DNA of 64,000 nucleotides from Flagellimonas sp. MMG031 (GTDB lineage Bacteria > Bacteroidota > Bacteroidia > Flavobacteriales > Flavobacteriaceae). This document shows, piece after piece, positions 11,464 to 36,006 of the stretch. The position numbers and the translations under genes were made by a program. A model generated the notes under the pieces. It ran no database searches. It saw only the letters and a list, made by a program, of their open reading frames with translations, and had not been told where the DNA came from. Position 1 is the stretch's first letter. Every line of letters starts with the position of its first letter. The DNA is taken from positions 1,978,001-2,042,000 of the forward strand of contig NZ_CP157804.1 in assembly GCF_040112705.1 (NCBI RefSeq), given 5' to 3'.

Positions 11464-11510
11464 AACGGTTGGATTTTAGATAGTTAAGATAGTCCATTCC
11501 AACCGTAAAG

Positions 11511-11549: not shown

Positions 11550-11576
11550 CAAAACAAAATGGTTGGTTACATACGC

Positions 11577-14629: not shown

Positions 14630-15232
14630 ATGCAATATCATATCACACATCGACCTTCGCTTTTAAAAGCAGTCATTTTTTGGCTATCGTTCGCCCTTGT
14701 TCCGATGGCACTTTTTGCACAAGATTTTACCCTCAATAATTCGGAAGGAGAAGTACTGGTTACAGGAACTTCCACCTTGCACGATTGGGAAGAAGTGGCA
14801 GAGCAAAAATCAGGTTCCATCAATTTGGACAAGACGGGAGAACTGCCCCAAATCACATCCTTAAAGTTTGTGGTGGAAGCGGAAAGCTTAAAAAGTGGTA
14901 AAGGAGCCATGGACAAAAACACCTATAAGGCCTTGGATACCAAAATGCACAAACAAATTGTGTTTGAGATGAAGAACGTGAAAAGCATTTCGCCCATCAC
15001 AGCCACTTCCAACAAATACAAAGTAGTGGCAACAGGCAACCTGACCATTTCGGGAAGTACCAAGACCATTGACCTACCTTTTAACCTAAGTATCAACGGT
15101 GACAAGGTGGTCCTGGAAGGCAAAAAGGCCCTGAAAATGACCGATTACAATATTGAACCTCCCAAAGCTCTTTTGGGAACGATTACCACTGGAGATGACA
15201 TCGAGGTTCACTTCAATACCGTTTGGAAATAA
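14630..15232 (+). CDS. YceI-family periplasmic protein
   Basis: 200 residues from ATG 14630 (a TTG eight codons upstream is less likely). A cleavable signal peptide ends near LFAQD. The mature part fits the YceI/lipocalin-like beta-barrel: TGTSTLHDWEE near the start, a central FEMKNVKSISP, and the closing PPKALLGTITTGDDIEVHF. YceI proteins bind isoprenoid-type lipids or quinones in a long hydrophobic pocket and are often linked to stress or respiratory functions. It sits 35 bp before the porin gene, and a more divergent relative follows that gene, so the three probably serve one envelope function. Confidence 0.9.
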   Translation: MQYHITHRPSLLKAVIFWLSFALVPMALFAQDFTLNNSEGEVLVTGTSTLHDWEEVAEQKSGSINLDKTGELPQITSLKFVVEAESLKSGKGAMDKNTYKALDTKMHKQIVFEMKNVKSISPITATSNKYKVVATGNLTISGSTKTIDLPFNLSINGDKVVLEGKKALKMTDYNIEPPKALLGTITTGDDIEVHFNTVWK

Positions 15233-15267
15233 TTTAATCTTAATACTCAACTAATAAATCTACAATC

Positions 15268-16530: not shown

Positions 16531-16548
16531 AAATTATAAATGTTCAAA

Positions 16549-16578
16549 AAGACCTAGGGCAATAATGTCCTAGGTCTT
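16549..16578. terminator. Strong hairpin after porin gene
   Basis: Perfect 10-bp arms AAGACCTAGG (16549-16558) and CCTAGGTCTT (16569-16578), extendable inward by C-G and G.T. There is no T run on the plus strand; on the minus strand it is followed by TTTTT. It may be a processing or termination hairpin between the porin and the next YceI-like gene. Confidence 0.55.
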
Positions 16579-16607
16579 GGCCATTAAAATTGTTATATTT
16601 AAGTATC

Positions 16608-17207
16608 ATGATAACCTCTATTCCACAAATAACGAAAACACTTTTCATTGGCCTCGTGCTTGTGTCTTGGTTTTCCTTTAGCGACCCTGAACGGGAAACT
16701 AAGGTAAGGGTGGAGCCACAAAGCGAGGTAGTGATCGCTGGTACTACCAATGTCAATAACTTTACCTGCAAATACAATTTACAGGAATTGGAGGTACCCA
16801 TTCGTTTGATCTACGACGAAAAATCCGAGCATATTCTTTTTAAGAATGCAGAGCTTAAATTGGTCAATGATTGTTTTGATTGCGGAGGAAAGGCCATCAA
16901 CAGGGATTTTCAAGAGTTGCTCAAAACGGAGAAGCATCCGCAAGTCGGGCTAAGATTATTGTACGTAGACCCCCCATCAGTCAATCAAAATATGGTGAGT
17001 GTTGGCTTGGAGATCAAAATCGCCGGGGTTACCCGCAAGTACCAGACCCTATTGCATTGTGAGCAAGCCAAGGATATTTGCGTAAAGGGTACTTTAGACT
17101 TGAAATTGAGTGATTTTGAGTTGAAAGCTCCCAAAAAAATGCTGGGTATGATCAGGGTAGACGACGAAATCAAAGTGCATGTTACCCTTCAAATGAGCGA
17201 AATCTAA
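16608..17207 (+). CDS. YceI-like exported protein (divergent)
   Basis: 199 residues from ATG 16608. A hydrophobic N-terminal segment (residues 9-25) acts as signal peptide or anchor. The body resembles YceI: VVIAGTTNVNNFTCKYN (compare the GTSTLHDW of the first copy), a central KIAGVTRKYQTLLHC and a closing PPKK-like APKKMLGMIRVDDEIKVHV. Unlike standard YceI it has five Cys, including DCFDCGG and HCEQAKDIC, which could form disulfides in the periplasm. It follows the YceI/porin pair and is followed by a terminator at 17232. Probably a paralogue that co-operates with the first YceI; the ligand is unknown. Confidence 0.72.
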   Translation: MITSIPQITKTLFIGLVLVSWFSFSDPERETKVRVEPQSEVVIAGTTNVNNFTCKYNLQELEVPIRLIYDEKSEHILFKNAELKLVNDCFDCGGKAINRDFQELLKTEKHPQVGLRLLYVDPPSVNQNMVSVGLEIKIAGVTRKYQTLLHCEQAKDICVKGTLDLKLSDFELKAPKKMLGMIRVDDEIKVHVTLQMSEI

Positions 17208-17231
17208 GCATTGTATGCTGTTAGAGTAAAG

Positions 17232-17267
17232 AAATCCGTTTTGATAAAATTATCTAACGGATTTTTT
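17232..17267 (+). terminator. Terminator of the YceI/porin group
   Basis: Arms AAATCCGTT (17232-17240) and AACGGATTT (17256-17264) with a 15-nt AT-rich loop, followed by TTTT. It lies 24 bp after the stop of the second YceI-like gene. Confidence 0.85.
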
Positions 17268-17349
17268 GTTTGAGCACATATTTCATAAAACCAATAATCA
17301 GTATCTTGTGTGCTACATAGATAACTGAAACTAAATTCAAACACTTCAA

Positions 17350-18216
17350 ATGAAACGATTAGTATTGACAAAGGGTATACTTGCGTTGGCCTTTGTGCTA
17401 TTGACAACCACTTTTTACGCTCAGGACAACTTTGGTGGACTTGCACTTTATACCGTTAGGGACAACATGGGAGAAGATGCTAAAGGCACTCTTCAAAAAG
17501 TTGCCGACGCGGGCTATGCTTACATAGAGGCCGCAGGCTACAATGAAGGAAAATTTTACGGAATGGAACCAGAGGAGTTCAAATCCTATCTGGAAAGTAT
17601 TGGATTGACCCCGGTAAGCACACACATGGGAATGGTTACTTTGGACAATGCTGATCAATTGATCGCCGATACCAAAGCAGCTGGCTTCACCTATTTTACC
17701 ATTCCGGTTCCACCGATGGGTATGTTCACTTTTGATCGTGAGAAGAGGACAATGGGGATGAAAGGTACCATGGAAGATTTTGCCAACGTACTGACAACCT
17801 TGGGGAAGAAATGTGAGGCGGCAGGATTAAAGCTATTGTACCACAACCATGATTTTGAATACAAGGATAATGAAGATGGCATAAAGCCTATTGACTATCT
17901 ATTGGAAAACACAGACCCGGAATATGTCAATTTTCAGATGGACCTCTATTGGGTGACGAAAGCCGGTGCTGATCCAGTGGCCTATTTTGAGAAATATCCC
18001 GGCAGGTTCAAACTATGGCATGTTAAGGATATGGACGACGAAGGGCGATTCGCCCCTGTTGGTGAGGGAAACATTGATTTTGGTAGAATTTTGAACGAGA
18101 AAGAGGCTTCGGGAATGCAAATGTATTTTGTGGAGCAAGACAGGACTTGGGACAAGGAACCATTGGAAGTGATCAAAATCAGCCATAAAGCGTTGAAAGC
18201 GATAGGGTTTCAATAA
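17350..18216 (+). CDS. Exported sugar phosphate isomerase/epimerase-like TIM barrel
   Basis: 288 residues with an N-terminal signal peptide (ALAFVLLTTTFYAQ). The rest is an AP-endonuclease-2/xylose-isomerase-like barrel: GYAYIEAAGYNEGKFYG, metal-ligand stretches LLYHNHDFEY (His/Glu), VNFQMDLYWV (Asp), KLWHVKDMD (His/Asp) and YFVEQD (Glu). This is the pattern of metal-dependent sugar isomerases/epimerases (3-keto-sugar and inositol-type relatives), which in Bacteroidota are frequently exported. Substrate unknown. It is monocistronic between a terminator (17267) and the tRNA-Arg gene. The 13-bp inverted repeat beginning at 18222 directly follows its stop. Confidence 0.87.
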   Translation: MKRLVLTKGILALAFVLLTTTFYAQDNFGGLALYTVRDNMGEDAKGTLQKVADAGYAYIEAAGYNEGKFYGMEPEEFKSYLESIGLTPVSTHMGMVTLDNADQLIADTKAAGFTYFTIPVPPMGMFTFDREKRTMGMKGTMEDFANVLTTLGKKCEAAGLKLLYHNHDFEYKDNEDGIKPIDYLLENTDPEYVNFQMDLYWVTKAGADPVAYFEKYPGRFKLWHVKDMDDEGRFAPVGEGNIDFGRILNEKEASGMQMYFVEQDRTWDKEPLEVIKISHKALKAIGFQ

Positions 18217-18221
18217 AAACC

Positions 18222-18296
18222 AATGTAAGCGGTTATGATAGCATTGCAATAAAAGGGCAAGAAATCAAAAAAATATTTTTTACAACCGCTTACATT
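18222..18296. repeat. 13-bp inverted repeat flanking tRNA-Arg promoter region
   Basis: AATGTAAGCGGTT (18222-18234) and its exact reverse complement AACCGCTTACATT (18284-18296) are 49 bp apart. The right arm ends 2 bp before the -7 box of the tRNA gene. The loop is AT-rich and contains AAAAAAATATTTTTT. It could form a large hairpin ending the isomerase transcript or act as a binding site near the tRNA promoter. Confidence 0.6.
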
Positions 18297-18298
18297 AG

Positions 18299-18306
18299 TA
18301 TCTTTG
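18299..18306 (+). promoter_or_regulatory. -7 promoter box of tRNA-Arg
   Basis: TATCTTTG matches the Bacteroidota -7 consensus TAnnTTTG exactly and ends 14 bp before the tRNA 5' end. A T-rich stretch, not a clear TTG, occupies the -33 region. Confidence 0.7.
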
Positions 18307-18320
18307 CACCCGCAAAGTTT

Positions 18321-18394
18321 GGTCGCGTAGCTCAGCTGGATAGAGCATCTGCCTTCTAAGCAGACGGTCGAAGGTTCGAATCCTTCCGCGATCA
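18321..18394 (+). tRNA. tRNA-Arg (anticodon TCT)
   Basis: 74 nt folding as a complete cloverleaf: acceptor GGTCGCG/CGCGATC (one G.T), D-stem GCTC/GAGC, anticodon stem TCTGC/GCAGA with loop CTTCTAA (anticodon TCT at 18355-18357, reads AGA), T-stem GAAGG/CCTTC with TTCGAAT loop, discriminator A. From 18353, inside the anticodon loop, its 3' part is duplicated at 28951. The gene is therefore the integration site of the element to its right, which supplied the present 3' half unchanged. Confidence 0.97.
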
Positions 18395-18397
18395 CTA
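18353..18397. repeat. attL: 45-bp direct repeat (tRNA side)
   Basis: Identical to 28951-28995. It starts at the anticodon loop of tRNA-Arg and extends 3 bp past the discriminator base; the flanking bases (18352 C versus 28950 G; 18398 G versus 28996 A) differ. It marks the left junction of the integrated element. Confidence 0.95.
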
Positions 18398-18403
18398 GTA
18401 TTC

Positions 18404-18445
18404 ATAGGGCCTCAGAGAGTTTCTCTTTCTGAGGCCTATTTTTTT
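18404..18445 (+). terminator. Terminator supplied by the element behind tRNA-Arg
   Basis: Arms TAGGGCCTCAGA (from 18405) and TCTGAGGCCTA (18428-18438), one bulged G, followed by seven T. It lies inside the element 10 bp after the tRNA and replaces the chromosomal terminator now found at 28996-29028. Confidence 0.85.
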
Positions 18446-18463
18446 GCAAACAATTTGCAAACA
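18443..18463. repeat. Left copy of TTTGCAAAC doublet (probable recombinase arm site)
   Basis: Two TTTGCAAAC units separated by AA, followed by A: 21 bp identical and in the same orientation as 28823-28843. It lies about 50 bp inside attL. Short direct repeats inside both ends are typical of integrase arm-type or excision-factor sites. Confidence 0.7.
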
Positions 18464-18578
18464 CCTCATTTTTTAACAGTATTTAACACGATAATAGCCT
18501 ATTTGTCAAATCTTGAATCGATTTATCTTGATTTCACTTGGTTTAATATTTAGTTCTATCTCTTCTTCATTGAAATTG

Positions 18579-18866
18579 TCAAACTTTGTTTTTAAGGCGT
18601 TTTTTAATTCGATTAAATACATTCAAACATATTGAGGCCAAAATCATGGGCAGAATAACACAAATAGCTGTTTGTAGCTCTAGATTATCTTTTCTGAATT
18701 GTGGTGAGGTATAATATTCCCAGATATACGAAAACAACTTTATAAAAAGTATTATCAATCCAAGAAACAATATAATCCCAAGAATAATAAGAACCCCATT
18801 GCCAAACATCGAAAATTCGTCTTTTAGGTTTTTTATAATCTTTGATTTACTTGGTTTTTCGTACAT
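18579..18866 (-). CDS. Small two-helix membrane protein of the element
   Basis: 95 residues, very Lys/Ile-rich. Two transmembrane stretches (about residues 22-46 and 68-85) with basic cytosolic ends (KSKIIKNLKD at the start, NRIKKRLKNKV at the end). It diverges from the next gene with only 18 bp between start codons, so the two share a very compact promoter zone. No recognisable family. It may be the small partner of the following membrane-protein operon, or only a neighbour. AT-rich codon use differs clearly from chromosomal genes outside the element. Confidence 0.6.
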   Translation of the reverse strand: MYEKPSKSKIIKNLKDEFSMFGNGVLIILGIILFLGLIILFIKLFSYIWEYYTSPQFRKDNLELQTAICVILPMILASICLNVFNRIKKRLKNKV

Positions 18867-18884
18867 TTTCAGGAATATTTAAAC

Positions 18885-19388
18885 ATGAAAATAAAGAGTA
18901 TAACATTCTCTCCACAGGAACCAAAGTTAAAAATCATCAAGAATGTATTTGTTTATATTTCTGAAAAGCATGAACAAATCATAGTCACCCCATTTTATAA
19001 AGAACCTAATCAAGGATACAGATACTCCCAAGAAGAGTGTGAAGTATTAAAAATTGATTCTTCTTATGACTTGATTGGAGAAGCGATAAAACGAAACATC
19101 CAGAAATTTGATATAAAAGAATATGATGCAAAGCGATCTAGTAAAAAGGACGGTTACACGGCTTTTCATGTGAGTAAAGAAAAATCAATGAGGGGTTTTG
19201 AAAAAAACTATACACTTATTGATGTAAGCGGATTAACGGATAGGAACAATACTTTCAGAATTCAAACTAGACTTGGGTTTATCAATAGACTTGAAATTAC
19301 ATCTACAATTTCGGCACATTGTGATAATGCAGAATTAGGGAAATTGGTCATGAAAATGTTTAATTCTGAAATCGTTGAAAGGAAATAA
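18885..19388 (+). CDS. Unrecognised soluble protein, first gene of element cargo operon
   Basis: 167 residues, no signal or membrane helix. It starts with a strand-rich segment (KIKSITFSPQEPKLKIIKNV), has a central charged stretch YSQEECEVLKIDSSYDLIGEAIKRN and ends with alternating strands and a helix (AELGKLVMKMFNSEI). The fold looks alpha/beta; small immunity-type proteins share such a look, but I cannot name a family. Its last base overlaps the ATG of the next gene (19388), so translation is coupled to a membrane protein. Function unknown. Confidence 0.65.
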   Translation: MKIKSITFSPQEPKLKIIKNVFVYISEKHEQIIVTPFYKEPNQGYRYSQEECEVLKIDSSYDLIGEAIKRNIQKFDIKEYDAKRSSKKDGYTAFHVSKEKSMRGFEKNYTLIDVSGLTDRNNTFRIQTRLGFINRLEITSTISAHCDNAELGKLVMKMFNSEIVERK

Positions 19389-19840
19389 TGAATGAGGTAT
19401 TTCCTTGGATAGTTTTAAAGGATGAATTCTTTTTCAATGGGACCATTGAGCAATTAGAAGAAAAATTAAGGTTTCAGAATAACCAAAAATTTAGAGTTGA
19501 ATGGATAGACTATCAATCATTTAAATTTTTATCCAACTTTTCGGTGGGAACAATAATGGTAAAATTTAATCCAGGGTTTGCAGATGGAATAAAAGGCTAT
19601 GCCAATTTAATTGAAACGGAGTCAGGCAAGACAAAAGTTTCACTTAGAACCAAAATCCGAATTGAATTATACTTTTTCCTAGCAGTTATGGTAATTGCAA
19701 TTATTGCAGCGTTAGCATCAGAAGAAGTTTTTCTAACTTGGGCGCTATGGCTTACACCTTTTGGTTTATTATGGTTTTGGTTTGTGTATCGAATACAAGA
19801 AAGAATCCTTTTCAATAAGTTGAAAAGCTACTTAAGTTAG
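19388..19840 (+). CDS. Two-helix membrane protein with N-terminal domain (cargo operon)
   Basis: 150 residues. A soluble N-terminal domain of about 95 residues (FFFNGTIEQLEEKLRFQNN, then KFRVEWIDYQSFKFLSN) is followed by two hydrophobic helices (about 96-112 and 115-134) and a short amphipathic tail IQERILFNKLKSYLS. The layout of an N-domain binding or sensing something in the cytosol, two helices and a short helix recurs in the next gene, although sequence identity is low. No family recognised. Coupled to the upstream gene by a one-base overlap. Confidence 0.62.
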   Translation: MNEVFPWIVLKDEFFFNGTIEQLEEKLRFQNNQKFRVEWIDYQSFKFLSNFSVGTIMVKFNPGFADGIKGYANLIETESGKTKVSLRTKIRIELYFFLAVMVIAIIAALASEEVFLTWALWLTPFGLLWFWFVYRIQERILFNKLKSYLS

Positions 19841-19865
19841 TTAAAGAAAGACTTAAAATTAAACT

Positions 19866-20270
19866 TTGAGCATTACACTAATCAAAACAGATTATACTAT
19901 TTCAGCCCTACATAAACTTGTATCAGGCGGAAAATATAAAGGCTTTGTCAATATGAAGGAATTCGAATTGGTAAGGCTAAAATCTCATAAGTTTTACAGA
20001 GTTAAGGGAAAATTGAACGAAAAGAATGAATTCGTTGTTGAAACAGACTTTATAAAATCTTTGAAAATTTTGGTCAAGACCTTTAATATTTTTGGGGTTT
20101 TGACTTCTTTGATTTTAGCGTTTGTAATTTCCAACTGGACACTTGTGATATTATACTTTGTTTTGAGGCTGTTTATGGAATTATATACAAGGTATCATGA
20201 AGAAAGGGAGATACGTTTGTTTTCTGAAGCCTATTATGGGCTAATTCGAGAAGTACAGCATAACTATTAG
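19866..20270 (+). CDS. Two-helix membrane protein, same architecture as previous gene
   Basis: 134 residues from a TTG start at 19866; no closer ATG gives the N-terminal domain. A soluble N-terminal part (ALHKLVSGGKYKGFVNMKEF, then KFYRVKGKLNEKNEFVVETD) is followed by two helices (about 74-90 and 95-107) and an amphipathic tail EIRLFSEAYYGLIREV. The order and spacing of these parts copy the preceding gene, suggesting old duplication or a shared functional design. No family recognised. 25 bp after the previous stop and 4 bp before the next start, so operonic. Confidence 0.58.
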   Translation: MSITLIKTDYTISALHKLVSGGKYKGFVNMKEFELVRLKSHKFYRVKGKLNEKNEFVVETDFIKSLKILVKTFNIFGVLTSLILAFVISNWTLVILYFVLRLFMELYTRYHEEREIRLFSEAYYGLIREVQHNY

Positions 20271-20274
20271 AATA

Positions 20275-21234
20275 ATGGAAGGATTGATTAATGTAAAAGG
20301 CTATTCTGAGAAGAATCTAAAGTTGGCTATCAGACAATGGATTGATTTGTATTTCGAAAGTTTAGATAGCAAATTGACCATTAATCTGTTCCAAGTTGAA
20401 GACTCAATCCAGATAGAAGTTAATAACCTCTCTAACCAATTGTTCTTTTTCTTAATTAACTATTTAAAGTACCCTGAAGATATAAAGGGGGCCATAGAAA
20501 TATTGGGATATACAGGAGGTGATGAGAGTAGTAATTTTAAAGGTCAGGACATATTGATTTATATTCCTTCTGATGATACTGAATATGATAACGTTTATGT
20601 GGTTACAGAAAATAATATTCATTTCAAGATTGACTTTGGTGGTGGAATAAAAAAAGTTAATTCCAGCATTCCAGAATTTTTTAAGTTAACACCAGTAAGC
20701 ACATCACCGATAGATTCTATTATAGTTTCTAAAAAAGCGAGTGTCTATTTTGATAAGAAGCAATTCTTTAAAACCATTGAAGGAAGGTTTACCATAATAT
20801 CTTTGGTACTCTTCATACTATTAATATTTCATTTTCTGTATATCAATGGAGATAGAGACATGCTTGAAAAAGAAAGAGCAACTTGGTTTTTATATGCCGG
20901 AGTTTCTATTTGGTTTTTTATTGATAATGAAATGCTTAAAAAAGATATTCTGTATCTAGGTTGTTTTGCAATAGCAATTGTATTGATGGTTTATGGGGGG
21001 GATTTTGTAAATAATTTTCCAAAAACATTAACTGAAAAGTTAGGGCCATTTACCTTAATGCCATTAACTTTTTTAATGTTGCAATGGCCTCTTCGAAGAA
21101 TATACAAAGGATTATTTAAGAAAGAACCGAAGACTGATAGGGACGGGGGTGTAACTGATTTCATATATTCAATGGCACTTACATTTGGCTCAATTATTTT
21201 GCCATTCGTATTGTATGGATTAATAAATAAGTGA
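20275..21234 (+). CDS. Larger membrane protein closing the cargo operon
   Basis: 319 residues. A cytosolic N-terminal domain of about 165 residues (SEKNLKLAIRQWIDLYFESL, then IEILGYTGGDESSNFKGQDI) is followed by four or five hydrophobic helices (about 173-192, 206-217, 226-241, 258-270 and 300-316) with a basic, polar loop FKKEPKTDRDGG before the last. It resembles no family I recognise. As the last and largest gene of the four-gene plus-strand group, it could be the effector or channel component, the smaller two-helix proteins being partners; this is speculation from layout only. Confidence 0.6.
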   Translation: MEGLINVKGYSEKNLKLAIRQWIDLYFESLDSKLTINLFQVEDSIQIEVNNLSNQLFFFLINYLKYPEDIKGAIEILGYTGGDESSNFKGQDILIYIPSDDTEYDNVYVVTENNIHFKIDFGGGIKKVNSSIPEFFKLTPVSTSPIDSIIVSKKASVYFDKKQFFKTIEGRFTIISLVLFILLIFHFLYINGDRDMLEKERATWFLYAGVSIWFFIDNEMLKKDILYLGCFAIAIVLMVYGGDFVNNFPKTLTEKLGPFTLMPLTFLMLQWPLRRIYKGLFKKEPKTDRDGGVTDFIYSMALTFGSIILPFVLYGLINK

Positions 21235-21694
21235 TTGTTATATCTAAAAAAATAACTATTCAAATCAGTTCATATTACCATTCATCAATTCACAACGTAT
21301 TTTTCTTTTAGTAAAAAGGTTATATTTATAATATGCTTTCAAGCATAATTTGTGCGGCAAATAAATAATTGATTTGACTTTCCTAAAGTCCGTACAAACC
21401 AAAGAAAATTTATAGGGCAGCTGATTTTCAATCATGCTGTATTCATTTGGTCCCGCTTGCGGGACGAAGGAATAGCAAGAGGGTGATGCGCAGATTGCGC
21501 CATCACGGTTGTTTTCGGGTCTTCAACAAGTTGAAAACCAGTCAATTGAACAGATTTTGGAATACTGTGCAAAATCAAGGGCTACAGTAGGCTTTTCCGA
21601 AATCTACAGTAAACCCTTTGGGAAGCCCCATAAACACTGGAAATTTTTGACGAAAAAATTGACACAATTTCACTAAAAAAACAAAATCGCACTT
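21235..21694. other. Intergenic region with oriT-like hairpin cluster
   Basis: 460 bp without a gene. At 21450-21465 GTCCCGC-TT-GCGGGAC is a perfect hairpin; at 21483-21506 GTGATG/CATCAC with inner CGCA/TGCG (one bulged C) forms a second; at 21522-21535 TTCAAC-AA-GTTGAA a third. All three lie within 90 bp, directly upstream of the mobilization genes, where the origin of transfer of Bacteroidota mobilizable elements is usually found. A very short frame starting at 21436 (13 codons, MLYSFGPACGTKE) spans the first hairpin but is unlikely to be a gene. Confidence 0.55.
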
Positions 21695-22279
21695 ATGGAA
21701 AAGCAATCAACCAACGGTAAAATAAAGAAAGGGACGGGGGGTTATTCCAATATCACCGTAAAGAAGGAAACGGCCACACGCTTTCGCAGCTATTCCAAAA
21801 GGTTCAACAAATCCCATAGCGAGGTTTTGGAAGGAATGATACAATACTTCAAGGAGAACAACCTTGATCCTTTTGGAGAGGGAACAAAGGTCATCCTTGA
21901 CAGCATCAAAAAATTGGAGCGTCAGATGATGAAAAAATTCGATAGGCTCATCGCCATTATCAAGAACATGGAAAAGACCAGTATCAGGCCCACCTATGAA
22001 ATGGTACTCATCCTTTATGAAGCCTATGTAAAGGATGGGAGGAAACCTAAACGTGAACCAATCAAGATACAGGAAGAGCGAATGGATTTTTTGGAGTCTA
22101 GAAACACTGTTCCAAAAGTTGAGCACGAGAGAATCCTTCATGAATTTGAAAGCTATAAAAAGCGTTGCAATGAAATCATCGACAATGTGGAAAAGGTGGA
22201 GCCTATGATGGGAAAGCCCTATCTAAAGATCAATATGGGCATGGGGGATTATGAAAGTATTAAGTATCAATTAAAATGA
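21695..22279 (+). CDS. BfmA/BtgA-family mobilization protein
   Basis: 194 residues, basic and helical. It begins with a Lys/Gly-rich tail and a ribbon-helix-helix-like stretch (YSNITVKKETATRFRSYSKR then SHSEVLEGMIQYF, residues 17-50), then coiled-coil helices. This matches the small DNA-binding mobilization proteins of Bacteroidota mobilizable transposons (BfmA, BtgA), which bind near oriT and help the relaxase nick. Its stop overlaps the relaxase start by 4 bp (ATGA at 22276), a clear two-gene unit. The oriT-like hairpins lie 160-250 bp upstream. Confidence 0.82.
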   Translation: MEKQSTNGKIKKGTGGYSNITVKKETATRFRSYSKRFNKSHSEVLEGMIQYFKENNLDPFGEGTKVILDSIKKLERQMMKKFDRLIAIIKNMEKTSIRPTYEMVLILYEAYVKDGRKPKREPIKIQEERMDFLESRNTVPKVEHERILHEFESYKKRCNEIIDNVEKVEPMMGKPYLKINMGMGDYESIKYQLK

Positions 22280-23307
22280 CACTTATGTACCTTACCATCT
22301 CAGCACAGAAAATAGGCAGTACCTATAACTCCAGTGTGGGGAGCTATGTGGACTATCTGGAAAAGGAAAACGAGGATAGGTCGCCCGAACAAAGGGAGGA
22401 ATTCTTTGACCAAGAGAACGACAGCGTAAGCCCTGAAAAGGTCATCGATGAAATTGATGCCAATACCGCCAAATTAAGGCAGAAGGACCCGAAATTCTAT
22501 TCCATTGTGGTCAGTCCCAACCAAAGGGAACTTAAAGCCATAGGAAATGACCAGAAACTGTTAAGGGAATACACTAGGAAACTCATGGAGGACTATGCCA
22601 AGAGTTTCCATAGGAACCAAGAGGTAAAGGCCGAGAACCTGAAATACTATGCCAAGATCGAACATGAACGCACCTATAGGGGCTTTGACAAACAGGTTCA
22701 GGAGAATGCTCCCTACCGAGGGGAGATAGCAAGGCTCAAAAACGAGATACGGAAAGTGGAACGTGGCGAATCCATTGGGAATGTCAAAGAGCTTGAAAAG
22801 AGGATTGCAGAGCAAACAAGATTGGCCCCACACAAACAGAACGGGCAGCTTGTGGCCGCAGGGATGCAAAAGGAGGGGCCACAGACCCATATCCATATCA
22901 TAGTCAGCAGGAGGGATGTGACGAACACCTATACACTTTCACCCATGGCCAAGCACAAGGCCTCGGAAGTGGAACTGAACGGAAAGACGGTAAAGAGGGG
23001 ATTTGATCGGGACAGCTTCTACCAAGCAGCCGAAAAGACCTTTGACAGGACAACTGGGTTCAAGAGGAACTATGTGGAATCCTATGTTGGGAGAAAGGCC
23101 CATGCCAAGGAACCGGGGAAGTTCTTTGCCAAGGTCATGGGACTGCCCACCAAGGAAAAGGACATGGCCTTTAAACTCCTTAAGACGATGGGTATCAAAG
23201 CTCCCAGCATACCTACCAATAAAGTGCAGATGGCGGCCAAGATCATTAAGGCACTTGGAAAGGGTATCGATAAGGCTAGGGGAGCAGGTGAGGACATGGG
23301 TTACTGA
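22276..23307 (+). CDS. MobB/BtgB-type relaxase (DUF5712 family)
   Basis: 343 residues. An N-terminal relaxase-like domain has YLTISAQKIG, a Tyr-rich SSVGSYVDYLEKEN as candidate nicking region, and a divalent-metal motif THIHIIVSRRD (His-x-His) near residue 213. The C-terminal part is basic (KAAKIIKALGKGIDKARGAG). This is the BtgB/DUF5712 relaxase type paired with BtgA in mobilizable Bacteroidota elements; it would nick oriT and lead the strand into a helper's secretion channel. No coupling protein is encoded here. Base composition is closer to the chromosome than the AT-rich cargo upstream. Confidence 0.85.
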   Translation: MTLMYLTISAQKIGSTYNSSVGSYVDYLEKENEDRSPEQREEFFDQENDSVSPEKVIDEIDANTAKLRQKDPKFYSIVVSPNQRELKAIGNDQKLLREYTRKLMEDYAKSFHRNQEVKAENLKYYAKIEHERTYRGFDKQVQENAPYRGEIARLKNEIRKVERGESIGNVKELEKRIAEQTRLAPHKQNGQLVAAGMQKEGPQTHIHIIVSRRDVTNTYTLSPMAKHKASEVELNGKTVKRGFDRDSFYQAAEKTFDRTTGFKRNYVESYVGRKAHAKEPGKFFAKVMGLPTKEKDMAFKLLKTMGIKAPSIPTNKVQMAAKIIKALGKGIDKARGAGEDMGY

Positions 23308-23328
23308 AATCCCAGAAGTAGGTTGCGC

Positions 23329-23384
23329 CCTTTCGGGTTTTTGCTTTACGCTTATCTACCGGAACACTACAAAAACCCGAAAGG
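23329..23384. repeat. 14-bp inverted repeat downstream of the relaxase
   Basis: CCTTTCGGGTTTTT (23329-23342) and AAAAACCCGAAAGG (23371-23384) are exact reverse complements 28 bp apart, starting 22 bp after the relaxase stop. GCGC also occurs just outside both arms (23325-23328 and 23391-23394). It may terminate the mobilization transcript or form part of a transfer or processing site. The remaining 195 bp up to 23578 hold nothing I recognise. Confidence 0.6.
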
Positions 23385-23578
23385 ATCCATGCGCAAAAGT
23401 TGGGGGTAAGATTTGGGGACACTTACAGCACTTCACTGTGTTCCGTTCGCCCTTCATTTATCTAGCCTTCCCTCTTTTAGGATATCGCTAAATTCATAAA
23501 ATTATCATTAATGTCTTCTGTTTCGGGGAAGAATTGGTTGGACAATAAATTGAAAGGGGTTGATCTAGGGGCTGATGG

Positions 23579-25198
23579 TTACCTTATTAACGAAAAATGC
23601 CCTTTAAAAACCTGTCCGTCCTTAAAATTTATAATAAACCAATAGTCTGCTGGAGGCATTCTATTTCCATTAAATACTCCATCCCACGAGCCATTTTTCA
23701 GGGAGAAGTTATTCAGCATCTTACCATATCTGTCATAGATAAAAACATTACCATCTTTACTGATATTGCCCATATTAGGTCTCCAAATATCATTGATGTC
23801 ATCTCCATTGGGGGAAAAAAACTTTGGATAATCAACTATTGTAAAATCCAAGCCGGCTTCACCACAACCGTTGATATCTTTAACTACCAAATGATATGTA
23901 CCTGGAGCAATACTTGTAAAAGTTGATGAAGATTGTTCTATTCCATTTAAGGAGTACAAATAGTCACTTATTCCTGTCGTACTAATTTCAACTGTTTGTT
24001 GGTTCGTAAAAAGTTCTCCGGACAGGGAATATGCTAAATCAAACGGAATTGAAGATTCAACAACAGAAAAGGAGTAAGTTCTTGAACATCCGTTGGGAGC
24101 TACAATATTTACCGAATATTCTCCCGGAACAAATACCTCAACGTTATTATTTGTTTGATCGGATAAAAGGTCGCCATCTAAAAACCATTGAAAAGAATAC
24201 TTTGGGTCATCAATGTCTGTGTCAATGAAAATGCTTTGATAGTTGTTACTGTTTGTATTTTCTTTACATATAAAATATGTGTCTTCTAAATCAGGCACAA
24301 TAGGCTTCTGTGCAAATTCAATAAAAAGCCAAGAATCCAAGCTATTGTCCCCTCTATTGGTCAATATAATTTCCAATTCATAGACTTCACCGGGAATGAT
24401 CGGTGAGACAGCGGTTAGCGGCACGGTTCTACCGTTCGCCTCAATTTCGCCCGTACCAACTTCTTGCTCTATAAAGTATGATTGGAATCCAAGATTGTTA
24501 CACTCCGGATTGTTATGAATGCTATGTAGGCCTACTTGCGTAACTTGATCCGGTAGTAATGCAATGTTTTTACCGTGATGTACATATTCTATTTCAGGTG
24601 TTGTCGTGTCATTGTCATGATCAAAGGTATCTGGTGTAATACCTGGACCGGTCAATAATATTGCAAATCCATCCTGTTTTGAACTATCGCCATCAAAACA
24701 TTCAATGTCCCCAACTTTATAAGACTCAGAAGCAAATATGTAATTTAAATTGAAAAAATCAGTTTGAGATACAAATCTCAATTTAATAGCTTTTGATTCC
24801 GAATATTGACCGACAGTACCAATTCTATCGTCGAGAATTTCCTGTATGGTATATATCCCGCCAAACGGTTCGCTGACCGAACTCGTCCTTAGTGATTTGT
24901 TTGGTCCGATTGACATCTGTGCTTGACCTGTTGATAGTACGAAACCTGTATCAAACGGAAATTCTGAGTTACCTCTATTAAATGTGCTGATTCCATTTAA
25001 CGATAGATTGGTCGCCCTTTCAATAGAAACATCAAGGCAATCGGTATCGAAAGAGTCATCAAATATATCCTTCAATTTACCATTTATGTCAGCATATTCT
25101 CTGTCTTCAATAACAATGGATTGCCCAGATAACGCTACCGAATAGCCTAAAAGAGTTATAAAAATAACAAGCTTTGGATAATTCAATTTCATGGGCAA
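23579..25198 (-). CDS. Choice-of-anchor L domain protein with T9SS type B sorting domain
   Basis: 539 residues. N-terminal signal peptide (VIFITLLGYSVALSGQ). Residues 40-300 form a choice-of-anchor L domain: NGISTFNRGNSEFPFDTGFV and LRFVSQTDFFNLNYIFASES are characteristic. Then Ig/PKD-like modules (about 305-460) and, from about 458, a gliding-motility-type C-terminal domain: FFSPNGDDINDIWRP, FIYDRYGKMLNNF and PPADYWFIINFKDG. The last directs secretion by the type IX system and surface attachment. It would be a surface adhesin or structural protein. It is cargo of the mobile element, transcribed toward the mobilization genes. Confidence 0.9.
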   Translation of the reverse strand: MPMKLNYPKLVIFITLLGYSVALSGQSIVIEDREYADINGKLKDIFDDSFDTDCLDVSIERATNLSLNGISTFNRGNSEFPFDTGFVLSTGQAQMSIGPNKSLRTSSVSEPFGGIYTIQEILDDRIGTVGQYSESKAIKLRFVSQTDFFNLNYIFASESYKVGDIECFDGDSSKQDGFAILLTGPGITPDTFDHDNDTTTPEIEYVHHGKNIALLPDQVTQVGLHSIHNNPECNNLGFQSYFIEQEVGTGEIEANGRTVPLTAVSPIIPGEVYELEIILTNRGDNSLDSWLFIEFAQKPIVPDLEDTYFICKENTNSNNYQSIFIDTDIDDPKYSFQWFLDGDLLSDQTNNNVEVFVPGEYSVNIVAPNGCSRTYSFSVVESSIPFDLAYSLSGELFTNQQTVEISTTGISDYLYSLNGIEQSSSTFTSIAPGTYHLVVKDINGCGEAGLDFTIVDYPKFFSPNGDDINDIWRPNMGNISKDGNVFIYDRYGKMLNNFSLKNGSWDGVFNGNRMPPADYWFIINFKDGQVFKGHFSLIR

Positions 25199-25332
25199 TT
25201 AATTGAAAGATAAAATATTCAATAAATTAAGAAAAAATAAAATAATTTGTAATATATTACATACGAAAATAATTTTATTATTACGTTATAATGAATTTCG
25301 TTGAACTCACTTAGAAAAGTAAACAATTTAAA

Positions 25333-25737
25333 ATGAAAATGTTTCTATACGTTATATCAATTCTGTTATTTTCTTGTTCTGATAATTCTGGTCAAGAAGG
25401 TTACCAGGTGAATCAATTTTTAGGAACCTGGAAATTGACAGCAACCTATCAAACCAAATTGGATGGAAGTGCCGATTGGGAAACTGTTGATGATAGTGCG
25501 AGTTATACCATAACTTTTGCTGATGGCAATGAAGCTGTCGTTAGTTATAGTTCATGCAGTGGCACCTATGAATATTCAGAAGAACAATCAAAAATTTCTG
25601 TTTTTTTTGAATGCCTAGATGATAGGACTGATTATTTCATTGATGATGAAAGTGATCTTCCGGATATTTTGATAGTTAGTGCATTAGGGAATAATACGCC
25701 GGATGAGGGTATTAAGCTCAAATTTTTGAAAATATAA
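25333..25737 (+). CDS. Lipocalin-like lipoprotein
   Basis: 134 residues. Lipobox LLFSC at residues 11-15 gives a lipoprotein. The mature part has the lipocalin-like start FLGTWKLTATYQTKLDGSAD and alternating strands (SASYTITFADGNEAVVSYSS, then CSGTYEYSEEQSKISVFF), a common Bacteroidota outer-membrane lipoprotein type. Cys 73 and 92 could pair. It sits 28 bp before the metalloprotease gene and is probably co-transcribed with it. A role in holding or protecting the secreted protease is possible but not shown. Confidence 0.75.
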   Translation: MKMFLYVISILLFSCSDNSGQEGYQVNQFLGTWKLTATYQTKLDGSADWETVDDSASYTITFADGNEAVVSYSSCSGTYEYSEEQSKISVFFECLDDRTDYFIDDESDLPDILIVSALGNNTPDEGIKLKFLKI

Positions 25738-25765
25738 ATTATAAATCTCATAATCACGGTCCAGC

Positions 25766-27394
25766 ATGAAAAAAATTACTACGTTAATAGTTTTTATTGG
25801 TTTTAATTGCCTCATCCACGCCCAAGAATGTGCTACCCCTACACCGACCGCATATTCAGTTTCATCAGGTATTTCTGGAAAATCTTCAGTCTCTTCCTCC
25901 TATTGTTTGAATTTATATTTCCATATTGTTCGCAGAACCAATGGTACCGGTGGGGTCAATCCAACGGTTATCGACGATATTCTTAATGTCATGAACAGTG
26001 CATTTTTACCACACGAAATTTCAATACAATCTGTCGGCAATGATTACATCGATAGTGATGCTTTATTCGATATCGGAACGGACAATGAGGCGAACCAGCT
26101 ATTTGGTACAAACAACCAAGCGAATGCCATAAATGTTTATCTTGTAAATTCAGGTCAAACCTCCAGTGGAATTGTTTACGCTGGATTGGCCCAGGATATT
26201 CCTAGCAGGAATATGATAATAGATAATGATTTTGTGCTTACTTCTACAGCTCCCCATGAATTGGGACATTGTCTTAACTTATTGCATACTCATGAAACTT
26301 ACTATGGGGTTGAAAATATAAATGGTTCAAATTGCTCAACGGCTGGGGATAAAATTTGCGATACGCCAGCTGACCCGCAGCTTTCGAGTTTTAACGTCGA
26401 TGTTACCTGTAATTACACTGGCGGAAATGGTTACAGTCCCCTTACGGATAACATTATGTCCTATTCAAGGTCGGCATGCCGAGATTTATTTACTGATGGA
26501 CAAGTGGCGGTTATGAAAAATGCGATACCACAATATTCTATTTTATCAGATGCTGTAGCAACGAACTGTCAGATAACCAAGTTGATTGGTGACGATTGTA
26601 CTTGTTCGAATATAAATACAGTAATAACCCTGCAATATCCCCCAAGTACCACTGTTAACTGGACTACTTCAACCAATATGACCATTGTAAGCAGTACTAA
26701 TAGTTCGGTTACGGTCAAGGGGGTAAGTGGTACTCGAAGTCAGGGTCAGGTCACGGCAAGTTTTAATGGTATTCAATTAACAAAAGATGTTTGGGTAGGC
26801 GAACCCAGTGCACCATCTTCCCTTTCCGGTCCATCATCTGTTTTAACAGGTGCATTTGTAAATTATAACTCGTCCGTAGCTTCTGGAGCCAGTAGCTATG
26901 AATGGCGTCTGCCTTATCCTTTTGATGTAGTTACAAGCTGGAATTACAATGGTCAGCGTTGGCAAATGAGGACAACAACGGATCGCTATCTTACAGCTTA
27001 TACTGGAATGGGACAGATTTCCGGATTGGTACAGGTCATGGGGAAAAATAAATGTGGTGTTGGAGGAGCTAAGACTAAAAGTGTATCCCATTCAAGCAGT
27101 GGTGGAGGTGGAATTCCACTTAAGACTCAATTCGATGGTATAGGAGTAGCTATAACTGAAAACCAAATTTATCCTAACCCTGCAAATGAACGGATAAATA
27201 TCTTGCTGAAGAATCGCGCTGATTTAACTTTTGTAAATGTCACTTTAAGCAGTATGGACGGGAAGGTTTTATTCAAAAGCCAAAACAAGAACTTATCGGT
27301 TGTTCCAACTGAACATTTAACGAACGGGGTTTATATACTTAATATAATAACTGATCAAGAAATAGTTCAAAAATCAATTATTATATCTCACTAG
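25766..27394 (+). CDS. Secreted M43-type zinc metalloprotease with T9SS type A sorting domain
   Basis: 542 residues. Signal peptide (TLIVFIGFNCLIHAQ). The zinc-binding motif HELGHCLNLLH (HExxHxxxxxH) lies near residues 165-175, followed by a Met-turn region NIMSYSRSACRDLFTDGQ near 228-245, the pattern of pappalysin-like M43 peptidases. After it come beta-sandwich modules (about 270-440) and a C-terminal T9SS type A domain (IYPNPANERINILLKN to the end). It would be exported by the type IX system and degrade extracellular proteins. Cargo of the mobile element, behind a lipoprotein gene. The 185 bp after it up to the integrase stop contain no gene. Confidence 0.92.
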   Translation: MKKITTLIVFIGFNCLIHAQECATPTPTAYSVSSGISGKSSVSSSYCLNLYFHIVRRTNGTGGVNPTVIDDILNVMNSAFLPHEISIQSVGNDYIDSDALFDIGTDNEANQLFGTNNQANAINVYLVNSGQTSSGIVYAGLAQDIPSRNMIIDNDFVLTSTAPHELGHCLNLLHTHETYYGVENINGSNCSTAGDKICDTPADPQLSSFNVDVTCNYTGGNGYSPLTDNIMSYSRSACRDLFTDGQVAVMKNAIPQYSILSDAVATNCQITKLIGDDCTCSNINTVITLQYPPSTTVNWTTSTNMTIVSSTNSSVTVKGVSGTRSQGQVTASFNGIQLTKDVWVGEPSAPSSLSGPSSVLTGAFVNYNSSVASGASSYEWRLPYPFDVVTSWNYNGQRWQMRTTTDRYLTAYTGMGQISGLVQVMGKNKCGVGGAKTKSVSHSSSGGGGIPLKTQFDGIGVAITENQIYPNPANERINILLKNRADLTFVNVTLSSMDGKVLFKSQNKNLSVVPTEHLTNGVYILNIITDQEIVQKSIIISH

Positions 27395-27579
27395 CAGAAT
27401 CCTTTTGTAGATTTACCTCTTCTAAGTACATCGCTAATTTCATGATATTAAAATAAATGATGCTATTTAAGAAGGGATATATCATGAAAAAATTCAACTA
27501 AAACAATGATTTTCAATAATATATGATTTCATGGATGATTCCAGTCATGACGGCCTCCCTTAAATTGTCGTTAATAACT

Positions 27580-28800
27580 TTAGATAGCTTCAATTAACTT
27601 CTCATTGTAATCATCCAGGATAGTAGTCGGCAACGATTTGAGATAGATTTGAGTTGTATTCAGCTTACTATGTCCAAGCATGGCAGAAATGGCCTCCAAA
27701 GGAATGTTGTGAAGCATAGCTTGTGTAGCAAAGCTATGTCTGCTAACGTAGGTTGTAAGCTTCTGCTCAATTCCACATAACTCCTGAATTGTTTTTAACC
27801 CGCGATTATAACGCTGCCTTTCCCAATTAATCTCTCGTTCCTGTTTAGCAGGATTTTCTCGTTTTATTACAGGAAATATGTAATCCTCCGCTTTCTTTCC
27901 TTTCAAATAACTGTTCAAGATTTCTGAAAGTTGTCCGGTTATTTTTATGTCATATAGTTTTCCTGTTTTCTTTCTGCGAAATTTAATACGACCGTTCACT
28001 ATATTGCTTACTTGGAGGTATGCCATGTCCGTGAAGTTCATACCATAGAGAAAAAAGGAACAAATGAAATAGTTTCGATATCTAAACAATGCTTGATCCT
28101 CTGGAATTTCCAATTCTAGGATCTTTCTGATATCTTCAATTTCCAAAGCTCGTTTTTCGGTTGGAATTTGTCTTATTGTATAATTCATAAAAGGATAGGC
28201 TTCCTTTTCAATTAACCCTGCTTTTATACCCTTATTGAAGAGTGCTCGTAAGCCGCGTAAGTAAGTAGATAATCCATTCCAACTATTTCCCTTTGCTAAA
28301 TGATATTTTTCAAAGCGTTTGATAAAGGAGTAATTCACTTCATTGAACTTAAGATCTTTGCCCTTATTGAAGGTCTTCAAGACCGATAAAATGCCTTTAT
28401 AATGTCTTGCCGTCCCATATCTGTGTGCCGCCTTTAAATCCTCAACTACAGAATTCCCAAATTCAAAAAAGGATTCATAGGTACTGTTTCTTGTGATTCG
28501 ATTTTTCACTTCAACAATTGACAAATAGTTCAACTTACCTTGATCAGAAAGTTTGTTGAGAATGTCATTTGCACGAGCTTCTTCTTTTAATAAAAGTGTA
28601 TTCAATCGGGCAATGGATTCCGTGCGAGTGTAGTTTCTTTTAATGGAACATTTTTGATGATCCCAAAATATTTCGGATATTGAAAAACCAGTTGCGATGG
28701 ATGTTGTTTTTCGCAAATGAGTGAGGCGAAAAATGATAGGGTAGGTGCCATCTTTTTTTGCTCTTCTTGTATCCAATAAAAGGGTCAAATATGTTCTCAT
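27580..28800 (-). CDS. Tyrosine recombinase (integrase) of the element
   Basis: 406 residues. N-terminal arm-DNA-binding domain (TLLLDTRRAKKDGTYPIIFR), SAM-like core-binding domain (about 110-210), then the catalytic domain: the Lys of the beta-hairpin in RRKKTGKLYDIKI, SRHSFATQAML (Arg of box II), LGHSKLNTTQIYLKSL (His and nucleophile Tyr). In box I (FLYGMNFTDMAYL) the canonical Arg after Gly is absent, as in other Bacteroidota integrases with altered Arg I. It reads away from the right end, its start codon 150 bp from attR, and the arm-type doublet lies 23 bp upstream, so integrase binding could also repress its own gene. No excisionase gene is visible. Confidence 0.95.
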   Translation of the reverse strand: MRTYLTLLLDTRRAKKDGTYPIIFRLTHLRKTTSIATGFSISEIFWDHQKCSIKRNYTRTESIARLNTLLLKEEARANDILNKLSDQGKLNYLSIVEVKNRITRNSTYESFFEFGNSVVEDLKAAHRYGTARHYKGILSVLKTFNKGKDLKFNEVNYSFIKRFEKYHLAKGNSWNGLSTYLRGLRALFNKGIKAGLIEKEAYPFMNYTIRQIPTEKRALEIEDIRKILELEIPEDQALFRYRNYFICSFFLYGMNFTDMAYLQVSNIVNGRIKFRRKKTGKLYDIKITGQLSEILNSYLKGKKAEDYIFPVIKRENPAKQEREINWERQRYNRGLKTIQELCGIEQKLTTYVSRHSFATQAMLHNIPLEAISAMLGHSKLNTTQIYLKSLPTTILDDYNEKLIEAI

Positions 28801-28822
28801 TTACTTCAAGTTAGCAAAAAAA

Positions 28823-28843
28823 TTTGCAAACAATTTGCAAACA
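28823..28843. repeat. Right copy of TTTGCAAAC doublet
   Basis: Exact copy, same orientation, of 18443-18463. It lies between the integrase start and attR, about 108 bp inside the right junction. Probable arm-type site for integrase or a host/element accessory factor. Confidence 0.7.
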
Positions 28844-28950
28844 AATAATTGATTCCATTTGATTTCAAATGAGGTTAAAATAAATGTAACACATTGAAAT
28901 ACAATAAAATATAGTGATTTTGGTTTTTGGAAGATTTGGTATTAAAGCGG

Positions 28951-28995
28951 CTTCTAAGCAGACGGTCGAAGGTTCGAATCCTTCCGCGATCACTA
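28951..28995. repeat. attR: 45-bp direct repeat (tRNA 3' remnant)
   Basis: Identical to 18353-18397: the tRNA-Arg sequence from the anticodon loop to 3 bp past the discriminator. The preceding bases do not continue the tRNA, so this is a remnant and not a second tRNA gene. Confidence 0.95.
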
Positions 28996-29028
28996 AAAAA
29001 AAGCTCCCAAACATGGGGGCTTTTTTTT
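28996..29028 (+). terminator. Original terminator of tRNA-Arg, displaced by the element
   Basis: AAGCTCCC (29001-29008) pairs with GGGGGCTT (29015-29022, one G.T), followed by eight T. It sits right after attR, where the terminator of the uninterrupted tRNA gene would have been. The next 190 bp up to the promoter at 29220 hold nothing I recognise. Confidence 0.8.
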
Positions 29029-32140: not shown

Positions 32141-32180
32141 GCGGTTTGGTTTGTATCGTTATTTCTTAGGTGAATGCTGG

Positions 32181-33326: not shown

Positions 33327-33327
33327 A

Positions 33328-34701: not shown

Positions 34702-34711
34702 TTGCTTCGGA

Positions 34712-35992: not shown

Positions 35993-36006
35993 GAGTTGAT
36001 TTTTTT

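What the first reader, a model, noticed from the sequence alone, without database searches (positions are those of the whole stretch)
18353..28995. 10.6-kb mobilizable element in the tRNA-Arg gene with exact 45-bp att repeats
The sequence shows a perfect 45-bp direct repeat (18353-18397 and 28951-28995) beginning in the tRNA anticodon loop. Between the copies are an integrase reading inward from the right end and a BtgA/relaxase pair, but no conjugation genes. Known integrative elements use tRNA 3' ends in this way. The combination defines a complete mobilizable element with its exact boundaries and an unusual cargo.
Basis: partly seen in the sequence, partly recalled or inferred. Interest (0 to 1): 0.8.

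Follow-up and report, generated by a model that had tools for sequence, protein, structure and literature searches.

The report
Mobile DNA island with hitchhiking relatives
This is a 10.6-kb stretch of DNA that sits in a tRNA gene of a marine bacterium and has evidently moved between species, probably by borrowing other elements' transfer machinery; its likely transfer start site is also found, without the matching enzyme gene, on other islands that may ride along.

Summary
An exact 45-bp repeat (18353-18397, 28951-28995) bounds a 10,598-bp unit in an intact tRNA-Arg(TCT) gene, with a tyrosine integrase, BtgA, a MobB relaxase and cargo; no scanned protein matched a conjugation-pore family. A same-species genome has the empty site. 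[Muricauda] okinawensis (identity inferred) carries the element with one SNP in 10.55 kb plus an inserted IS-like sequence, while chromosome beside it is 80.5% identical: recent interspecies transfer. It is a canonical integrative mobilizable element (IME).

The new part is its oriT-like block (21440-21694). Sixty congeneric genomes hold 69 strong copies; 24, in 15 genomes, have no BtgA/MobB nearby, and 19 of these lie within 2 kb downstream of integrase sequence. The adjoining btgA segment shows no such orphans (43 of 43 lie beside a block). The window's own genome has a 13.3-kb island of this kind in tRNA-Met, with no relaxase found: exact repeats, empty site in the same species, one mismatch in 13,367 bp to another species. 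I infer three tiers: ICE pore, MobB IME, orphan-oriT island. That the block is an oriT and that MobB acts in trans are inferred, not shown.

The parts
18321..18395 (+). tRNA-Arg(TCT), target gene, intact
   Evidence: ARAGORN
18353..18397 (+). attL, left copy of the 45-bp core repeat, within the tRNA 3' part
   Evidence: exact repeat; empty site in G059
18407..18437 (+). terminator-like hairpin carried by the element behind the tRNA
   Evidence: the left end 18398-18463 recurs in L116 and L123 and in G027 and G063, and is absent from the empty site
18443..18470 (+). left copy of inner direct repeat, probable integrase arm site
   Evidence: family D3; role inferred
18579..18866 (-). 95-aa membrane-like protein, cargo
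   Evidence: only matches below cut-off; 89% relative in L137
18885..19388 (+). 167-aa protein, cargo
   Evidence: no family; 90% relative in L137
19388..19840 (+). 150-aa membrane-like protein, cargo
   Evidence: YwiC just below cut-off
19866..20270 (+). 134-aa membrane-like protein, cargo
   Evidence: no family
20275..21234 (+). 319-aa protein, soluble N-terminal part and helices, cargo
   Evidence: 12 homologues, none with a named function; model pLDDT 86, pTM 0.51, no PDB match at E<=0.001
21440..21694 (+). oriT-like noncoding block; hairpins about 21450-21465, 21483-21506 and 21522-21535; nearly invariant part about 21470-21541
   Evidence: oriT function inferred
21695..22279 (+). BtgA (BfmA/BtgA family mobilization protein)
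   Evidence: NF041200, 77.2 bits over cut-off 24
22276..23307 (+). MobB family relaxase
   Evidence: NF041495, 370.5 bits over cut-off 200; DUF5712
23579..25198 (-). choice-of-anchor-L protein with type IX secretion type B sorting domain, cargo
25333..25737 (+). 134-aa lipoprotein-like protein, cargo
   Evidence: GH43_C lipocalin-like match below cut-off
25766..27394 (+). M43-type metalloprotease with type IX secretion type A sorting domain, cargo
27580..28800 (-). tyrosine integrase (Arm-DNA-bind_5, SAM-like, catalytic domain)
28823..28850 (+). right copy of inner direct repeat, probable integrase arm site
   Evidence: family D3; role inferred
28951..28995 (+). attR, right copy of the 45-bp core repeat
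28996..29026 (+). native terminator of the tRNA, displaced by the insertion
   Evidence: follows the tRNA directly in G059

Best explanation
The 10,598-bp unit is a canonical integrative mobilizable element. Its tyrosine integrase recombines a core of 43-45 bases in the 3' half of tRNA-Arg(TCT), probably with arm sites at both ends, and leaves the tRNA intact with a terminator brought by the element. After excision BtgA and MobB would bind and nick the oriT-like block at 21440-21694, and a helper ICE's pore would carry the strand to a recipient. The same block is a mobilization tag on other integrated islands without BtgA and MobB; most likely MobB IMEs such as this one supply the relaxosome in trans, and resident ICEs the pore. 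Shown: boundaries, empty site, gene content, recent interspecies movement of the IME and of one orphan island, orphan blocks with controls. Inferred: excision, oriT function, trans action of MobB, choice of pore. I put about 0.93 on the IME part alone and 0.6 on the helper part; the figure below is for the whole.
For: Exact repeats and intact tRNA. Empty site in the same species. One SNP plus an IS-like insert in 10.55 kb against G072, with 757 of 940 compared upstream bases identical. BtgA, MobB and integrase over cut-off. Same layout with other cargo in Euzebyella marina. Block: 69 strong copies in 60 genomes; 24 orphans in 15 genomes; 43 of 43 btgA segments beside a block against 26 of 69 blocks without btgA, two of these at contig ends; 14 of 15 genomes with orphans hold MobB of 90% or more, against 8 of 45 without orphans; 16 of 29 weak hits of the block lie 473-766 bp before a diverged MobB gene on the same strand, 15 of them with the same 5' part. 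Orphan island in tRNA-Met of this genome: empty site in G059, one mismatch in 13,367 bp to another species, no relaxase among 14 of its 16 ORFs. Three TraG homologues over cut-off in this genome.
Against: No excision or transfer was tested. Orphan blocks differ more among themselves than paired ones (85.9 against 90.6% in the outer part). The hairpins show almost no covariation. G030 has an orphan but no close MobB. The Fisher test ignores relatedness, and the labels are clustered on the block tree (7 changes, shuffled mean 14.4). Three orphans keep short btgA remnants, as decayed IMEs would. Of 16 loci with integrase of 67% or more, only 3 show MobB within the fetched DNA, so the integrase family often travels without it. 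The block was not found on plasmids or phages.
Confidence: 0.7

Rival explanations
1. The element is an ordinary MobB IME, and orphan blocks are passive remnants of IMEs that lost btgA and mobB.
For: btgA remnants of 36 aa in L149 and of 47-48 bases at two other orphans; orphan blocks vary more; one orphan has a broken integrase (L156).
Against: 43 of 43 btgA segments keep a block, none survives alone; the inner part changes at 0.36 (paired) and 0.38 (orphan) of the rate of the rest, so the constraint persists; 16 of 24 orphans have integrase sequence within 300 bp upstream; one orphan island is almost identical between species with empty site and exact repeats.
Confidence: 0.2
2. Orphan islands move by another route (transduction, transformation, or a relaxase not in Pfam), and the block has another role, for instance in integrase control.
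For: Block lies directly downstream of integrase sequence in most orphans; several island proteins have no family; SGI1 needed its own atypical mobilization proteins (PMC6414798 and PMC9299015, abstracts' beginnings only).
Against: In the window the block is far from the integrase and next to btgA; a part of it recurs at a similar distance before diverged MobB genes.
Confidence: 0.15
3. The window element is a dead or immobile island.
For: No circular form shown; in G072 an insert separates btgA and mobB.
Against: Exact repeats, full-length int, btgA and mobB reading frames here, one SNP between species.
Confidence: 0.05

Closest known systems
NBU1 and NBU2, Bacteroides IMEs (PMC5704250: passages and section 10 seen)
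   Same: Tyrosine integrase, 3' end of a tRNA gene, own relaxase, no pore, moved by ICEs
   Different: tRNA-Leu and tRNA-Ser, MobP relaxase with a single mobilization protein; here tRNA-Arg and BtgA plus MobB
Tn4399 and cLV25 (PMC5704250, table passages)
   Same: Relaxase plus one accessory protein, mobilized by helpers
   Different: Listed as MobP and with other or unknown integration sites
BtgA/BtgB of plasmid pBFTM10 (passages of PMC10865816, citing Hecht 1991)
   Same: BtgA-type accessory protein, reported to bind oriT, and partner mobilization gene
   Different: A plasmid; MobB relatives on plasmids are all under 60% identical (126 records)
MGIVflInd1-type mobile genomic islands (PMC5704250 section 10)
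   Same: Like the orphan islands: integrase, oriT resembling that of a helper, no relaxase
   Different: Helper relaxase sits on an ICE; Gammaproteobacteria; 63% oriT identity over 282 bp against 86-94% here
iMOB/iOriT scheme (PMC11389934, passages)
   Same: Foresees an iOriT using the relaxase of an iMOB and the pore of an ICE
   Different: A general scheme; the passages seen give no case in Bacteroidota

Membership tests
Integrative mobilizable element (IME, iMOB) | Site-specific recombinase and flanking att copies | tested here: met
Integrative mobilizable element (IME, iMOB) | Unoccupied site in a relative | tested here: met
   G059
Integrative mobilizable element (IME, iMOB) | Own relaxase | tested here: met
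   NF041495
Integrative mobilizable element (IME, iMOB) | No mating-pore genes | tested here: met
   11 proteins
Integrative mobilizable element (IME, iMOB) | Excision, circular form, transfer with a helper | not testable with these tools
   only indirect: one SNP between species
BfmA/BtgA-MobB mobilization module | Both proteins over curated cut-offs and adjacent | tested here: met
BfmA/BtgA-MobB mobilization module | oriT next to btgA that is nicked | tested here: inconclusive
   conserved noncoding block with hairpins; nick not testable
Integrative conjugative element (ICE) | Own mating-pore genes | tested here: not met
iOriT / mobile genomic island without relaxase (orphan-block islands, not the window element) | Integrase, att copies, empty site | tested here: met
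   for the tRNA-Met island of this genome; other orphans only in part
iOriT / mobile genomic island without relaxase (orphan-block islands, not the window element) | No relaxase | tested here: met
   tRNA-Met island: Pfam on 14 of 16 ORFs; G001-type island: 6 of 7 ORFs of 90 aa or more; 24 loci: BtgA/MobB search only
iOriT / mobile genomic island without relaxase (orphan-block islands, not the window element) | Transfer through a helper's relaxase | not testable with these tools
   inferred from shared block and co-occurrence
Cis-mobilizable island (CIME) for the 25-kb block right of the element | Flanked by att copies, no integrase | tested here: inconclusive
   attR at 28951 and an att-like 28/45 site at 54052 at the synteny joint; an 11-bp repeat offers another route

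The most novel reading that the evidence does not exclude
MobB IMEs such as this one are relaxase helpers for a population of islands without relaxase in Flavobacteriaceae: 24 orphan-block loci in 15 of 60 congeneric genomes, with several integrase groups and cargoes, depend on an IME's relaxosome, which in turn depends on an ICE's pore. This would be a three-tier dependency in a phylum whose few known IMEs were all called canonical in the 2017 review seen here.
Probability: 0.6. Interest if true: 0.75.

Novelty: new variant of a known kind. Interest (0 to 1): 0.62.

Why it matters
Many genomic islands have an integrase and att sites but no visible means of transfer. Here one class becomes testable: a 255-bp tag shared with a relaxase-bearing IME would predict which islands can move, and one such island moved between species almost unchanged while chromosome to its left is 78-81% identical. 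The 2017 review seen here places relaxase-less IMEs in Firmicutes and Proteobacteria and calls all the few known Bacteroidetes IMEs canonical (PMC5704250). If the model holds, mobility predictions for Bacteroidota must look for oriT tags and not only for relaxase genes. The window element itself is a new member of a known kind; the orphan-block islands make the system a variant.

Tried and rejected
ICE: rejected, no pore genes found. Defence cargo: PADLOC gave no match for 10 proteins. Phage origin: of 10 proteins PHROGs matched the integrase, and one short weak family for the lipoprotein-like protein. CTnDOT TraJ as a helper marker: no match in 3 genomes and none in the 14 controls, so uninformative; TraG was used instead. 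Block on plasmids or phages: no match in either collection. A family-wide scan of 299 genomes found the near full-length block only in G000 and G254, otherwise short hits; two candidates per genome were scored, so it is no count of orphans. MobB: no sequence relative among solved structures at E<=1. orf319: no PDB fold match at E<=0.001. RNAalifold on the 43 blocks: covariation term -0.06, so the hairpins rest on invariance. Origin of the 25-kb block right of the element: followed in part only.

Rows dropped before counts: of 27 blocks without listed MobB within 4 kb, three were set aside by hand (G072:C3, cut off from mobB by an insert; G063:C22 and G013:C1, contig ends), leaving 24. MobB lists were copied from the rows shown, whose weak end was cut. 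In one search the 123-aa MobB fragment of G028 was not counted; with it the comparison is 14 of 15 against 9 of 45. The alignment holds 43 distinct of 48 fetched copies; two of its 23 paired rows (L116, L138) come from outside the 60 genomes.

Mended: TraG distances, size of the compared element (10.55 kb), the 0.36/0.38 ratio, the 16 of 29 count.
Full report
OBSERVATION. The repeat is exact: 45 bp at 18353-18397 and 28951-28995, spaced 10,598 bp. No other place in the window comes near it (next best 28/45 on the same strand, 25/45 on the other). The left copy lies in an intact tRNA-Arg(TCT), 18321-18395, and starts in the anticodon loop. Just inside both ends is a second direct repeat with two TTTGCAAAC units (18443-18470, 28823-28850). 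Core plus arm sites is what one expects of an arm-binding tyrosine integrase, and the integrase has the Arm-DNA-bind_5 domain. A 13-pair terminator-like hairpin at 18407-18437 comes with the element.

CONTENT. BtgA (NF041200) and MobB (NF041495) are over their cut-offs; the integrase has all three expected domains. The cargo is an M43-type metalloprotease and a choice-of-anchor-L protein, both with type IX sorting domains, a lipoprotein-like protein with a lipocalin-like match below cut-off, and five small or membrane-like proteins without a family above cut-off. None of 10 proteins matched PADLOC. orf319 has 12 homologues at E<=0.001, none with a named function.

EMPTY SITE. In G059, labelled the same species, window 6312-18397 (95.9%) runs through one tRNA-Arg and the terminator of window 28996-29026 into window 54114-61013 (96.6%); the fetched stretch ends there. 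It also shows a second difference: about 25 kb right of the element (29027 to about 54113) is missing at this place in G059.

TRANSFER BETWEEN SPECIES. G072 carries the element on two contigs. Of window 18398-22270, 3,872 of 3,873 bases are identical; of window 22259-28950, 6,691 of 6,692; just upstream in the chromosome 757 of 940 compared bases. One of the two differences adjoins an insert of at least 1.3 kb, present at both contig ends and with a 396-aa reading frame, probably an insertion sequence (not family-scanned), which lies between btgA and mobB. One SNP remains. In the named genome collection 26 loci encode a relative of the integrase. Euzebyella marina CY01 (L116) has the same arrangement at tRNA-Arg with integrase 99%, MobB 93% and BtgA 81% identical and other cargo. 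L123 and L137 share the left end and a related integrase at tRNA-Arg but show no BtgA or MobB; of the 16 loci with integrase of 67% or more only three (L115 = G072, L116, L138 with an integrase fragment) show MobB in the fetched DNA. The integrase and the mobilization cassette are thus separable modules. The site is a hot spot: by my reading of the cut table, nine relatives carry a partial tRNA-Arg 3' copy of about 42-50 bases on the same contig as the full gene, roughly 7-97 kb away.

THE BLOCK UPSTREAM OF BTGA. The shared mobilization cassette runs from about 21320 to 23450 (L116, L138). Its noncoding part 21440-21694 folds better as single-stranded DNA than any of 200 shuffles (z -4.29). 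In 60 genomes of the genus one search lists 69 strong copies (260 bits or more; next best 69.8 bits). Forty-two have a listed MobB within 4 kb, 27 do not. Three of the 27 were set aside (one cut off by the insert in G072, two at contig ends), leaving 24 orphans in 15 genomes. I fetched all 24 with up to about 10 kb on each side where the contig allowed. With BtgA and two MobB queries at E<=1e-4 the only hit at an orphan was a 36-aa btgA remnant in L149; one search shows two further remnants of 47-48 bases. Nineteen of 24 have integrase sequence upstream on the same strand within 2 kb, 16 of 24 within 300 bp, and the integrases fall into several groups.

CONTROLS. A segment of equal length directly downstream, the start of btgA, has 43 strong copies in the same 60 genomes; 43 of 43 lie beside a block, while 26 of 69 blocks lack it, two of these at contig ends. 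Fourteen of 15 genomes with orphans have MobB of 90% or more, against 8 of 45 without orphans (Fisher p 2.3e-7; relatedness not corrected). In the alignment of 43 distinct copies (23 paired, 20 orphan) the 5' part is nearly invariant. Departures from the consensus per column in columns 5-76 are 0.36 (paired) and 0.38 (orphan) of those in columns 77-215, though orphans vary more overall. Paired and orphan copies are mixed on the tree: 7 changes, at least 3 forced by supported branches, yet more clustered than shuffled labels (mean 14.4); only 5 of 40 inner branches are well supported. Of 29 weak hits of the block, 16 lie 473-766 bp before a diverged MobB gene on the same strand, 15 with the same 5' part; two more lie 1,000 and 2,443 bp before MobB genes of the close class; 11 have no listed MobB nearby. 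The diverged MobB genes look like ICE relaxases: in 8 genomes 22 of 33 lie within 30 kb of a TraG gene, against 2 of 22 of the close class; 5 of the 33 and 14 of the 22 are on contigs without TraG, many of them short, so the contrast is suggestive only.

AN ORPHAN ISLAND IN THE SAME GENOME. G000:C1:74780-88113 is bounded by an exact repeat of about 46 bases of a tRNA-Met(CAT) 3' part, start-to-start 13,287 bp. G059 has the empty site. G076, another species, has the island: one mismatch over 13,367 aligned bases, while the chromosome to its left is 78-81% identical and the right flank is not the same there. Fourteen of the 16 reading frames of 60 aa or more were scanned with Pfam at E<=0.001: integrase, SDR dehydrogenase, peroxiredoxin, two DoxX-like proteins (one just below cut-off), AraC regulator, esterase, acetyltransferase, SUKH protein and proteins without a family; no relaxase. 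Another orphan island of about 9.4 kb is shared at about 99% by G001, G026, G081 and G064; in G001 it follows a tRNA-Arg att copy in tandem behind another element, in G081 and G064 it lies at tRNA-Arg itself; six of its seven reading frames of 90 aa or more were scanned, none a relaxase. So islands with the block and without the genes do move.

MECHANISM. Excision and integration by the integrase at the tRNA; nicking by MobB with BtgA at the block; export through an ICE pore (three TraG homologues over cut-off in this genome); the same relaxosome acting on orphan blocks elsewhere in the cell. Not shown: excision, nicking, trans action, choice of pore. In this genome the orphan block is about equally close to the window's block (203 of 220) and to that of a second MobB IME (202 of 220), so sequence does not say which IME would help.

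KNOWN WORK. The 2017 review (PMC5704250; [quoted passage not shown] The 2024 review (PMC11389934; passages seen) names iMOB and iOriT elements and foresees an iOriT using an iMOB's relaxase. PMC10865816 (passages seen) cites BtgA binding the oriT of pBFTM10. Searches cover open-access papers only; in their listings (titles and beginnings of abstracts) I saw no iOriT from Bacteroidota. Subscription papers and preprints were not searched.

VERDICT. The window element is a new member of a known kind, an IME with BtgA and MobB. The orphan-block islands that share its oriT-like site make the system a probable new variant: relaxase-less islands in Bacteroidota whose matching relaxase sits on an IME that itself needs a helper.

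Noticed in passing
window 29027-54113: A 25-kb block that looks like a sugar (perhaps rhamnose) utilization locus (names by eye, mostly not family-scanned) lies here but not at this site in same-species G059, which has part of it (window 30747-38153, 90-96%) about 130 kb away on the same contig; G016, G060 and G008 have larger parts elsewhere.
   Followed up: partly
window 54052-54131: An att-like sequence (28/45, third best in the window) sits at the right synteny joint of the 25-kb block, followed by a terminator-like stretch; GGGGCTTTTTT occurs at both joints (29016, 54119), so either an old att copy or a deletion or insertion between short repeats is possible.
   Followed up: partly
L081:1-1312 and L083:1-1317 (G072): In G072 a probable insertion sequence, with about 9 bp of duplicated target by eye, sits at the btgA-mobB border of the otherwise identical element.
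   Followed up: no
L155:10401-11009, L156:8906-9259, L163:10305-11102, L164:9036-9485, L168:8731-9405, L151:9554-9742: At least six orphan blocks are followed on the same strand by a resolvase-like serine recombinase frame or fragment (by eye), where paired copies have btgA.
   Followed up: no
L173:7834-10944 (G000:C1:3024000-3043500): The same genome holds a second close MobB module (94%) with BtgA and an integrase ending about 12 bp before the block: a second likely IME of another integrase type.
   Followed up: partly
L118 and L157 (G001): tRNA-Arg in G001 appears to hold two elements in tandem: one with a 97% integrase, then an orphan-block island.
   Followed up: partly
L138 (Maribacter sp. 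PR1): The mobilization cassette (window 21320-23418, 87%) occurs beside only the first 99 residues of a 95% identical integrase.
   Followed up: no
G058: One genome of the same order has many partial tRNA-Arg 3' copies on several contigs, perhaps arrays of tandem elements.
   Followed up: no
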